Shown here: in pieces, positions 36,754 to 39,101 of the stretch
How the letters are laid out: each line of letters begins with the position of its first letter
Position numbering within the stretch: position 1 is the first letter of the stretch
From: Pseudomonadota bacterium
GTDB lineage: Bacteria > Pseudomonadota > Alphaproteobacteria > Rhizobiales > Beijerinckiaceae
DNA length: 39,101 nucleotides
Direction: 5' to 3'
Assembly (NCBI GenBank): GCA_021804825.1
Contig: JAJZGX010000013.1
Span: 1 to 39,101, forward strand
The notes under the pieces: generated by a model
Seen by the model: only the letters and a program-made list of their open reading frames with translations
Databases searched by the model: none
What the model was told of the DNA's origin: nothing
Translations under genes and position numbers: made by a program

Positions 36754-37089
36754 ATGAGTAAAGCTGAAAGGCACGCCACCAATGACGTGCAAGAGTCTGT
36801 CGCCGCCAGCCAATCCACAACCAGCGCCGATACAATCGAACAAGTGCGCGAACTGCTGTTTGGCCACGAGAAGCGCTCGGCCGCGCAACGCGATATGGCG
36901 ATCAATGATCGGCTCAACGCGCTGAATGCCGATATGCTGGAGCGCATCGCCATGCTTGAAAGCCGCCTCGTCGAAACCGAGCGGGCGCTTGAAGCGCAGC
37001 ATAATGCGGCACTCGAGAACATTTCTTCTGCCATCAGCGAGCTTGGTTCACGCGTCGGGCAGATGGTCACGCATCGACGCGGCCGTTAG
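36754..37089 (+). CDS. Small coiled-coil protein of the OmpA/GTPase module
   Basis: A 111-residue, highly charged, helical protein without signal peptide or membrane segment. Residues from about 25 onward are a continuous coiled coil (IEQVRELLFGHEKRSAAQRDM, then LNADMLERIAMLESRLVETERALEAQ), ending in a basic HRRGR. I recognise no named family. Start choice: AGGGG at 36741-36745 lies 8 nt before ATG 36754; GTG at 36751 in the same frame would add one residue. The OmpA-domain gene begins 3 bp after its stop and the GTPase gene follows that, so the three form one transcription unit. It may be a cytoplasmic adaptor between the GTPase and the transmembrane protein; that is inference. Confidence 0.75.
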   Translation: MSKAERHATNDVQESVAASQSTTSADTIEQVRELLFGHEKRSAAQRDMAINDRLNALNADMLERIAMLESRLVETERALEAQHNAALENISSAISELGSRVGQMVTHRRGR

Positions 37090-37092
37090 CCC

Positions 37093-38904
37093 ATGGATAA
37101 AGCCGCGCGCAATCCGGGCGCGGAACCAGCCGTGCCGCTCGGCACGGCGCCAGACGATATGCGACGCCTGAAGGCGCTGCTCTTCACACCCGAGAGTAGC
37201 AGGCTCGAAGCGCTCGAAGCGCGGCTTGGCTCGCCGCAACGCCTCGAATCCGCCACCGCCGAAGTGATTGCGGATGCGCTGCGTCGCGCTGAAATCAGCG
37301 ATCATGACAATCTGTCGCGAGCCATCGCGCCGGTGGTGGTCGCGGTCATTCGCAGTGAAATCCGCAATTCCAAAGATATGATGGTCGAGGCGCTCTATCC
37401 CATCACCGGGCGCCTGGTATCGGCCGGCATTGCCGTTGCTTTCGCCGAAATGCTGGCGACACTGAACGCCAGACTGGATGCCTTACTTTCCGGCAATCAG
37501 CTGAAATGGCGTTACCTCGCCTGGCGCACCGGTCGGCCTTTGGCCGAACTGGTGCTTGCCGATGCGCGCCGCGCCAGATTGGAGCGATTGCTGTTTCTGG
37601 AACGCGGCAGCGGCCATCTCATCGCCCAGTGGCAGGCCGATCATGGGCAGGATGCCCGTGCCGATCTCCTCAGCGGCATGATTGCGGCACTGACGAATTT
37701 TGCCCGCACGGCGCTTGGCCATGAGGGCGGGGATCTGCGCCGCCTCGATCTTGGCGACAGCTTGCTTTATCTGCGCACCTCGGCAAGCCATATCATCGCC
37801 GCGGAATTCAATGGCGAACTGAAACCCGATCAAGAGCGCGCCCTCGATCGCGGCTTTCTTGATCTGCTCGATGCCAACATTGCTTCCGATAGCGACGCCG
37901 ACACCGATCTCGCCGGCCTTGCCGCAACCTTGGCTGAAGCGCCGACGGTGCCATCCAAGGCAAGGCGCAAAATTCGTCCGGTGTCGGTCTTAGCGGCGCT
38001 GCTGCTCGCAGGATTGGTCTGGTGGGGCGCCATATTGTGGCGCAACCACGCCAAATTTGCTTCCGTCGCCGGGGCGCTTGCAACATTTCGCGCCGAACAT
38101 CCACAAGTCGTCGGTTGGCCCTTGCGCCTGACCCAGCAATCGCGTCAGGTCACGCTCACCGGCCTGCTACCCTCCGGCGTGGATCGCCACGCGCTTCAGA
38201 GCCAGCTTGCTACCGCTGCCGCGCCCTGGAAACTGGTGACGCAACTTGGCAGCGGCGTTGCCGCAGGGCAAGCCGGGGCGCTGGCCCATTCTGAAGTCAC
38301 CGCGAGTCGGGAGCTCAACGCTTTAGCGACAAAGCTCGCTCAGGTGACGGCAAGCAATGCCCATGCTCAGGCGGGCTTCGATCAGGCCCTTGCCGGGCTG
38401 CACGCCAGCAATACCGCCATGGCGACCAGTCTGGCGACGGCAGCGGCCCACGCCGATACGCAGGCCGCCCATCTCGCCGCCGCCCAGAGCGCGCTGCAGG
38501 CCAAAGTCGCCACGCTGAGCGCTTCGATCACCACCCCGCAGGCGCAATTGGCAGCGGCGCTGCGCGGCTTTGCGGTATTCTTTGACAAGGCGACCAATGT
38601 GATTGATCCGGCGGACGTGGCCGCGAGACTAAGCGCCATCGTGCCCTTGGCCAAGGCGGCGGGCGGCATCCGGGTGATCGGCTACACGGATGACACCGGC
38701 AATATGCCGCTGAACCAGAAAATCTCGCTGCAACGTGCCCAATTAGTTGAAAAAATGCTAGAAGATGCGGGAATGCCGAAAGCCGGAATCGTCATTGTCG
38801 GCCGGGCTGACAGCAATCCGATTGAAGCCGTCAGCGGCGGCGCGCATAATACCAACCGTCGGGTGGAACTGCGCGGCATATTTGAGGGCGAAGTGGGGAA
38901 GTGA
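37093..38904 (+). CDS. Transmembrane OmpA-domain protein with cytoplasmic domain
   Basis: A 603-residue bitopic protein. Residues 1-290 are a soluble, mostly helical cytoplasmic domain of unknown fold. KARRKIR then leads into one transmembrane helix at about 297-316, so the C-terminus is periplasmic by the positive-inside rule. Residues 320-390 look like a small BON-like domain, and 395-480 are an Ala-rich helical spacer. The OmpA/MotB-type peptidoglycan-binding domain spans about 493-600. Asp533 (GYTDDTG) and Arg548 (SLQRA) lie 15 residues apart as in OmpA proteins that bind diaminopimelate, and NTNRRVEL follows. It is not an outer-membrane barrel. The Rab-like GTPase gene overlaps its stop, suggesting the cytoplasmic domain is the GTPase's partner. 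Confidence 0.85.
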   Translation: MDKAARNPGAEPAVPLGTAPDDMRRLKALLFTPESSRLEALEARLGSPQRLESATAEVIADALRRAEISDHDNLSRAIAPVVVAVIRSEIRNSKDMMVEALYPITGRLVSAGIAVAFAEMLATLNARLDALLSGNQLKWRYLAWRTGRPLAELVLADARRARLERLLFLERGSGHLIAQWQADHGQDARADLLSGMIAALTNFARTALGHEGGDLRRLDLGDSLLYLRTSASHIIAAEFNGELKPDQERALDRGFLDLLDANIASDSDADTDLAGLAATLAEAPTVPSKARRKIRPVSVLAALLLAGLVWWGAILWRNHAKFASVAGALATFRAEHPQVVGWPLRLTQQSRQVTLTGLLPSGVDRHALQSQLATAAAPWKLVTQLGSGVAAGQAGALAHSEVTASRELNALATKLAQVTASNAHAQAGFDQALAGLHASNTAMATSLATAAAHADTQAAHLAAAQSALQAKVATLSASITTPQAQLAAALRGFAVFFDKATNVIDPADVAARLSAIVPLAKAAGGIRVIGYTDDTGNMPLNQKISLQRAQLVEKMLEDAGMPKAGIVIVGRADSNPIEAVSGGAHNTNRRVELRGIFEGEVGK

Positions 38905-39101
38905 GCGTGCAAGCAAAAAGCCGCAGCGCCAAGGTGATGCTGCTCGGCGACATTGGCGTCGGCAAAACCTCATTGGCGCGTCGCCTGATCTTTGACAAGT
39001 TCGAGGGTGACTACAAAACCACCATCGGCGTCGATATTCTCACCTATGACTTGCAGCTTTCCGCCGCCTGCAACCATGAAACCATGCGGCTGGTATTATG
39101 G
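38901..39101 (+). CDS. Rab/Ras-like small GTPase (5' part, cut by window end)
   Basis: The first 67 codons of an open frame that runs off the window. The P-loop is GDIGVGKTS (16-24) and switch I reads YKTTIGVDI, very close to the YKATIGVD of eukaryotic Rab proteins. The last visible residue is a Trp in RLVLW, where the WDTAGQ of G3 would continue. GTG 38901 overlaps the OmpA-domain stop (GTGA). A second GTG at 38907 has GGGGAA 7 nt upstream and may be the true start. Bacterial Ras-superfamily proteins of this kind act as nucleotide-dependent switches, MglA being the best known. The coupling to a cell-wall-bound transmembrane protein suggests envelope or polarity control. The rest of the protein is not visible. 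Confidence 0.85.
   Translation, partial: MSVQAKSRSAKVMLLGDIGVGKTSLARRLIFDKFEGDYKTTIGVDILTYDLQLSAACNHETMRLVLW

What the first reader, a model, noticed from the sequence alone, without database searches (positions are those of the whole stretch)
36754..39101. Rab-like GTPase coupled to a peptidoglycan-anchored transmembrane protein and a coiled-coil partner
Seen: three genes in one strand with 3-bp and overlapping junctions. They encode a cytoplasmic coiled-coil protein, a one-TM protein with a 290-residue cytoplasmic domain and a periplasmic OmpA domain that keeps the Asp533/Arg548 peptidoglycan-binding pair, and a GTPase with P-loop GDIGVGKTS and Rab-like switch I YKTTIGVDI. Known: bacterial Ras-like GTPases such as MglA set polarity, and other prokaryotic Ras-like families remain uncharacterised. 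Inference: the GTPase switch reads or drives the state of a cell-wall tether across the inner membrane, a bacterial counterpart of small-GTPase control of surface attachment. The OmpA protein could be the effector and the coiled-coil protein an adaptor. What follows the GTPase (GAP, kinase, cyclase) is outside the window.
Basis: partly seen in the sequence, partly recalled or inferred. Interest (0 to 1): 0.75.

Follow-up and report, generated by a model that had tools for sequence, protein, structure and literature searches.

The report
Rab-like GTPase cell-wall signalling operon
This is one end of a known but unstudied bacterial operon that pairs a Rab-like molecular switch with a protein clamped to the cell wall; the previously unexplained inner half of that protein turns out to have the same fold (roadblock/longin) that regulates such switches in animals, yeast and gliding bacteria, which makes its function testable.

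Summary
Window 36754-39101 holds a coiled-coil protein, a one-TM protein with an OmpA domain, and the first 65-67 residues of a Ras/Rab-like GTPase; the contig ends there. It is not a new kind of system. Gene for gene it is the 'Group 1 Rup' system of Wuichet & Sogaard-Andersen 2014 (PMC4316618), which has no experimental work in the papers I could search. Homologous loci keep the order coiled-coil > OmpA protein > GTPase (42 loci read). In a sample of 349 Pseudomonadota genomes, 46 encode the cytoplasmic domain, 46 the GTPase and 44 both. A fourth, output gene usually follows; in all three same-genus loci it is a PAS-type histidine kinase. New here: the 'domain of unknown function' on the cytoplasmic side is a divergent roadblock/longin domain, the fold of MglB, Ragulator, TRAPP and Mon1-Ccz1. 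AlphaFold2, Foldseek, a second structural aligner and profile-profile comparison agree. Also new: outputs include class III cyclase, HD-GYP and sigma-54 activator; the coiled-coil and OmpA proteins share an N-terminal 'LLFG' motif. Best mechanism: envelope state is sensed through the OmpA anchor, passed by the roadblock/longin domain to the GTPase, then to the output enzyme. Fold and operon are well supported; signal direction and GAP/GEF role are inference.

The parts
36754..37089 (+). small cytoplasmic coiled-coil protein (111 aa) with N-terminal motif IEQVRELLFG
   Evidence: homologues at the same place in 42 loci; the 'LLFG' segment is shared with the OmpA protein
37093..38904 (+). wall-anchored inner-membrane protein (603 aa): LLFG motif and helices 1-158, roadblock/longin domain about 160-285, TM about 296-316, periplasmic linker, OmpA domain 497-586
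37537..37968 (+). roadblock/longin-like domain (segment used for the profile; residues about 149-292 of the protein)
   Evidence: AF2 strand/helix order bb-a-bbb-aa, pLDDT mostly 80-92; Foldseek and VIA; HHalign to Robl_LC7
38901..39101 (+). Rup (Rab-like) small GTPase, first 65-67 residues only (G1 and G2); cut by the contig end
   Evidence: full-length relatives L026:8004-8519 (98% identical over the fragment)

Best explanation
The locus is one end of a Group 1 Rup signalling operon. SHOWN by sequence and model: the OmpA-domain protein spans the inner membrane and keeps the peptidoglycan-binding Asp/Arg pair outside; inside it carries a divergent roadblock/longin domain; the next gene is a Rab-like GTPase that keeps G1-G5 but has no catalytic Gln in G3; in relatives the fourth gene is an enzyme or transcription activator behind a PAS-like domain and a helix with a conserved Gln, and in this genus it is a histidine kinase. 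INFERRED: the roadblock/longin domain, probably as a dimer, holds and regulates the GTPase as MglB holds MglA and longin GEFs hold Rabs; the state or position of the wall attachment sets the GTPase's nucleotide state; the GTPase then switches the output enzyme through its PAS-helix segment, whose Gln may complete the GTPase active site (a proposal of the 2014 paper). The coiled-coil protein shares the LLFG segment and probably docks at the same partner as an assembly or competitor subunit.
For: Operon identity. Fold: all top 50 Foldseek hits are roadblock/longin-superfamily chains, best E 5.5e-5; VIA Z 13.8 to a TRAPP complex chain, 12.4 to an Asgard longin, 12.2 to an Asgard roadblock, 11.6 to MglB in its MglA complex. 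Sequence, independent of the model: HHalign to a Robl_LC7 alignment 90-93% probability over about 102 columns, 0 of 200 column shuffles as high, four control families at most 0.2%; the only two PDB chains with E<10 to the profile are TRAPP BET5 and an Asgard roadblock protein. Outputs; PAS-like N-terminus. Rab-like. MglB acts as both GAP and GEF: PMC11016934; longins and roadblocks share their GTPase-binding mode: PMC3521125.
Against: No interaction was modelled or measured. The model has pTM 0.48, with the long N-terminal helices uncertain. No member passes Pfam's Robl_LC7 cut-off. Two loci (L074, L119) have the OmpA/coiled-coil genes but no GTPase next to them, and Rhodoblastus, Methylocystis and some others have no output gene directly downstream, so the set is not obligatory. 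Signal direction rests on analogy only. The window itself lacks G3-G5 and the fourth gene.
Confidence: 0.62

Rival explanations
1. Outward signalling: the GTPase is the controller and the OmpA protein its effector, so nucleotide state sets wall tethering or position.
For: The OmpA protein contacts the wall and the GTPase gene is adjacent. Roadblock/longin domains can also be passive platforms or effectors (general knowledge).
Against: The conserved fourth gene is an output enzyme of changing type behind a constant PAS-like segment, which fits a pathway ending in the cytoplasm. A Saprospiraceae version keeps coiled-coil, cytoplasmic domain, GTPase and kinase but has lost the TM and OmpA parts.
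Confidence: 0.18
2. Static scaffold: the roadblock/longin domain only recruits GTPase and output enzyme to a wall-fixed site (for example pole or septum); the regulated input is the PAS domain of the output protein and not the wall.
For: Roadblock/longin complexes such as Ragulator are membrane platforms (general knowledge). The output N-terminus is PAS-like and could sense a ligand.
Against: The PAS-like segment differs widely in sequence with only G, L and Q positions conserved, which does not suggest one shared ligand. It does not explain why the GTPase is kept.
Confidence: 0.15
3. The roadblock/longin match is a generic PAS/profilin-like alpha-beta resemblance and the domain is unrelated in function.
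For: Longin, roadblock and PAS folds are similar overall (PMC3521125). Single-sequence Pfam hits are sub-threshold.
Against: The top 50 Foldseek hits are all roadblock/longin superfamily and none is PAS, whereas the real PAS-like output domain retrieves PAS chains. Profile-profile score 43 against a shuffled maximum of 17. It sits beside a small GTPase.
Confidence: 0.05

Closest known systems
Group 1 Rup systems (Wuichet & Sogaard-Andersen 2014, PMC4316618)
   Same: Four-gene neighbourhood: coiled-coil protein, unknown domain-TM-OmpA protein, Rup GTPase without the G3 Gln, output protein with an N-terminal conserved Gln.
   Different: The paper names the middle domain 'unknown' and says Rup GTPases are not predicted to pair with MglB homologues; here that domain is roadblock/longin-like. 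It names GGDEF/EAL and histidine-kinase outputs as typical; class III cyclase, HD-GYP and sigma-54 activator are added here.
MglA/MglB polarity module
   Same: Small GTPase with a genetically linked roadblock-fold partner.
   Different: The GTPase is Rab-like with the G3 Asp kept (MglA has Thr there, PMC3000849 abstract); the partner domain is longin-like at its C-terminus, divergent, and fused to TM and OmpA parts.
Actinobacterial conservon (CvnA-D)
   Same: Histidine kinase, roadblock protein and small GTPase in one operon.
   Different: There the kinase is the membrane protein and the roadblock protein is a separate MglB homologue; here the roadblock/longin protein is the membrane, wall-bound part and the output is variable.
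Eukaryotic longin GEFs (TRAPP, Mon1-Ccz1, DENN) with Rab GTPases
   Same: Rab-like GTPase with a longin/roadblock domain; the best structural match is a TRAPP complex chain.
   Different: Eukaryotic ones act in vesicle traffic; the bacterial one is tied to the cell wall and to second-messenger or two-component outputs. GEF activity here is untested.

Membership tests
Group 1 Rup system | Ras-superfamily GTPase with eukaryote-like G1-G5 | tested here: met
   Window copy shows G1 and G2 only (cut). 30 relatives: K20, T39, D66/G69, NKxD and SA conserved; nearest 98% identical over the fragment
Group 1 Rup system | No catalytic Gln in G3 | tested here: met
   WDTDGD, WDLEGI, WDIEGA and similar, never Q after the G3 Gly in A4; the window copy ends just before the G3 Asp
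Group 1 Rup system | Adjacent cytoplasmic coiled-coil gene | tested here: met
   36754-37089; kept in 42 loci
Group 1 Rup system | Adjacent protein: conserved unknown domain, TM, OmpA | tested here: met
   37093-38904
Group 1 Rup system | Fourth gene: output protein with invariant N-terminal Gln | tested here: met
   Met in same-genus loci L026-L028 (histidine kinase); Gln in 25 of 28 outputs. Lies beyond the contig end in the window
Group 1 Rup system | Place in the Group 1 clade of a GTPase tree | not tested
   The reference sequences of the paper were not at hand
Group 1 Rup system | No association with MglB homologues | tested here: inconclusive
   No stand-alone roadblock gene was recognised among the neighbours scanned, but the OmpA protein itself carries a roadblock/longin-like domain
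roadblock/longin superfamily (cytoplasmic domain) | Fold: five-stranded sheet, bb-a-bbb-a(a) | tested here: met
   AF2 model and Foldseek/VIA
roadblock/longin superfamily (cytoplasmic domain) | Sequence-profile relationship | tested here: met
   HHalign 90-93%, 0/200 shuffles; the only two PDB profile hits are TRAPP BET5 and an Asgard roadblock, each weak
Pfam PF03259 Robl_LC7 | Gathering score reached | tested here: not met
   2 of 48 members hit at all, best E 0.027; so not filed as Robl_LC7 itself
roadblock/longin superfamily (cytoplasmic domain) | Dimerises and binds a small GTPase | not testable with these tools
   No complex prediction available
MglA family | Thr in place of the conserved G3 Asp, partner MglB | tested here: not met
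   D66 invariant in all 30 relatives; no stand-alone MglB gene seen next to it
OmpA/Pal peptidoglycan-binding domain | PF00691 with Asp/Arg binding pair | tested here: met
   E 1.5e-9, D533 and R548

The most novel reading that the evidence does not exclude
Group 1 Rup operons are bacterial Rab-longin modules: a cell-wall-anchored transmembrane longin/roadblock protein sets the nucleotide state of a Rab-like GTPase, which drives a plug-in output (kinase, cyclic-nucleotide cyclase, c-di-GMP enzyme or sigma-54 activator). This would be a GTPase-based wall sensor, and a bacterial counterpart, possibly a forerunner, of the Rab-longin pairing of eukaryotic membrane traffic.
Probability: 0.35. Interest if true: 0.85.

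Novelty: new member of a known kind. Interest (0 to 1): 0.6.

Why it matters
Rup GTPases are, in the 2014 analysis, the prokaryotic proteins most like Rab/Ran/Ras/Rho, and their partners and GAP were unknown. Finding a roadblock/longin domain in the conserved membrane partner supplies an obvious candidate regulator, links the Rup and MglA families under one partner fold, and bears on where the Rab-longin partnership of eukaryotes came from. It also turns an uncharacterised wall-to-cytoplasm signalling operon with exchangeable outputs into something that can be tested with two purified proteins.

Tried and rejected
The rest of the GTPase and the kinase were looked for elsewhere in the own genome: absent from the assembly. 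Defence-system reading: only weak MotB/OmpA matches to ZorB and one marginal partial match for the GTPase, rejected. MglA membership rejected (G3 Asp kept). Single-sequence Pfam search of the cytoplasmic domain shows nothing for the window protein. Natural fusions of the GTPase to the roadblock domain, which could show the interface, were not seen in the loci read. The Gly-zipper/YiaD and TssL matches of the OmpA part lie far below their cut-offs and only reflect the OmpA domain. The output type follows the GTPase tree with 9 changes against 23.5 for shuffled labels; ten loci counted as 'none' may have their output elsewhere.

Full report
WHAT IS THERE. The window is the whole of contig C129 of a 2.78-Mb, 163-contig genome. 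Its last 2.3 kb hold three + strand genes: a 111-aa coiled-coil protein (36754-37089), a 603-aa protein (37093-38904) and an open-ended GTPase gene from GTG 38901 or 38907. The 603-aa protein has one hydrophobic segment at about 296-316 and an OmpA domain at 497-586 (E 1.5e-9) with D533 and R548. The GTPase fragment matches Roc and Ras (E 8.8e-12 and 2.2e-9) and stops just before the G3 Asp. Neither the rest of it nor the expected kinase is on another contig.

CO-CONSERVATION. Relatives were found in the same genus (three loci), in other Hyphomicrobiales including Methylocystis and Rhodoblastus, and farther off in Spirochaetes, Calditrichaeota and Saprospiraceae MAGs. Adding searches of the class and phylum, I read regions from about 50 genomes; 42 distinct loci have the order coiled-coil, cytoplasmic-domain protein, GTPase on one strand. 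In an even sample of 349 genomes of the phylum, 46 have the cytoplasmic domain, 46 the GTPase and 44 both; 43 of 49 GTPase hits lie directly downstream of the domain. The Fisher value ignores shared ancestry (one family supplies many of the positives), so the adjacency is the better evidence.

IDENTITY. This is the Group 1 Rup neighbourhood of PMC4316618: coiled-coil protein, unknown domain-TM-OmpA protein, Rup GTPase lacking the G3 Gln, and an output gene with a conserved Gln in its N-terminal region. All gene-level features were tested and met. In the full-length GTPases of 30 relatives G1-G5 are kept and the residue after the G3 Gly is never Gln; the nearest solved chains are plant RabF2b, Rab22A and an Asgard Rab. 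The open paper library holds no later work on these systems.

THE UNKNOWN DOMAIN. AlphaFold2 on residues 1-295 with 14 natural sequences gives, for residues 162-282, strand-strand-helix-strand-strand-strand-helix-helix with pLDDT mostly 80-92 (mean 71.6, pTM 0.48, with the long N-terminal helices least certain). Every one of the 50 best Foldseek hits in the PDB is a roadblock/longin-superfamily chain or complex: Streptomyces roadblock, MP1/p14 and Ragulator, MglB alone and with MglA, a TRAPP subunit, Mon1-Ccz1, Rag proteins. VIA-align gives Z 13.8 (2j3t_D, TRAPP, rmsd 3.0 over 121), 12.4 (8yqg_A, Asgard longin, 3.1 over 120), 12.2 (9jue_A, Asgard roadblock, 2.2 over 101) and 11.6 (3t12_C, MglB, 2.7 over 104), spanning residues 160-287. 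The longin matches include both C-terminal helices, so the topology is closer to longin than to roadblock, though the Z differences are small. Sequence alone agrees: a profile of 48 homologues finds only two PDB chains at E<10, TRAPP BET5 (0.23) and an Asgard roadblock (0.37); profile-profile comparison with a 29-member Robl_LC7 alignment gives 90-93% probability over about 102 columns, score 43, against at most 17 in 200 column shuffles, 16 for the reversed alignment, and at most 0.2% for four control alignments. Single members do not reach the Pfam cut-off, so this is a divergent family of the superfamily and not Robl_LC7 as curated.

OUTPUT. Directly after the GTPase relatives encode: PAS-HisKA histidine kinases (this genus and most Alphaproteobacteria read), a kinase with a receiver (L112), class III adenylate/guanylate cyclases, GGDEF-EAL proteins, an HD-GYP protein (Spirochaetes) and a sigma-54 activator (Calditrichaeota). 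Their N-termini align, with a Gln kept in 25 of 28 at the start of a helix. The N-terminal model retrieves PAS structures, best E 2.2e-3. Output type follows the GTPase tree: 9 changes against 23.5 when shuffled.

SHARED MOTIF. The coiled-coil protein (IEQVRELLFGxE) and the start of the OmpA protein (MRRLKALLFxxE) resemble each other in nearly all lineages read, down to the Saprospiraceae pair (86.9% by HHalign; 0 of 200 shuffles, a few of which failed to run). I infer a common docking segment.

MECHANISM. Shown: domain make-up, membrane topology by prediction, co-inheritance. Inferred: the roadblock/longin domain regulates the GTPase, because this fold does so in MglB (both GAP and GEF, PMC11016934) and in longin GEFs, with a common binding mode (PMC3521125). 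I put inward signalling (wall anchor, domain, GTPase, output) above outward control of the tether, since the variable gene is the output enzyme and since the Saprospiraceae version dispenses with TM and OmpA while keeping the rest. Whether the domain is GAP, GEF or platform is open, as is the part of the output Gln.

JUDGEMENT. The locus is a new member of a system described from genomes but not studied. The roadblock/longin assignment is the new element; I found no prior statement of it in the library searched, which leaves out most subscription journals.

Noticed in passing
L070 (G252:C15) and L074 (G138:C12): Two copies of the roadblock/longin protein flank the coiled-coil gene; L074 has no GTPase next to them. 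A heterodimer of the two copies is conceivable.
   Followed up: partly
L119 (G373:C11:13000-24000): Cytoplasmic-domain protein with coiled-coil genes but no Rup GTPase found in the genome at E <= 1e-15.
   Followed up: partly
L042:3665-4462 (Saprospiraceae MAG): 265-aa version of the cytoplasmic-domain protein with no TM or OmpA part, in an otherwise complete operon.
   Followed up: partly
L039:1039-2802 (Spirochaetes MAG): Version with a different N-terminal region (no LLFG motif found), and BON plus OmpA domains after the TM.
   Followed up: no
L017, L018, L029: A LuxR-type response regulator lies next to the GTPase, convergent with it; in L018 a HisKA_3 kinase is beside it.
   Followed up: partly
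L125 (G476:C20): GTPase gene broken by several stops while a second copy elsewhere in the genome (G476:C4) is intact.
   Followed up: no
window:35769-36647: Inward-rectifier-type potassium channel (IRK_C E 3.3e-23) just upstream of the operon.
   Followed up: no
window:29529-34321: PAS histidine kinase, then an ORF that begins TsaE-like and ends kinase-like, then a nucleotidyltransferase: looks like the usual TsaE-AmgK-MurU wall-recycling neighbourhood (identification from memory).
   Followed up: no
L038:1385-3206 (Euryarchaeota MAG): Three small GTPase genes in tandem, each similar to the Rup GTPase.
   Followed up: no
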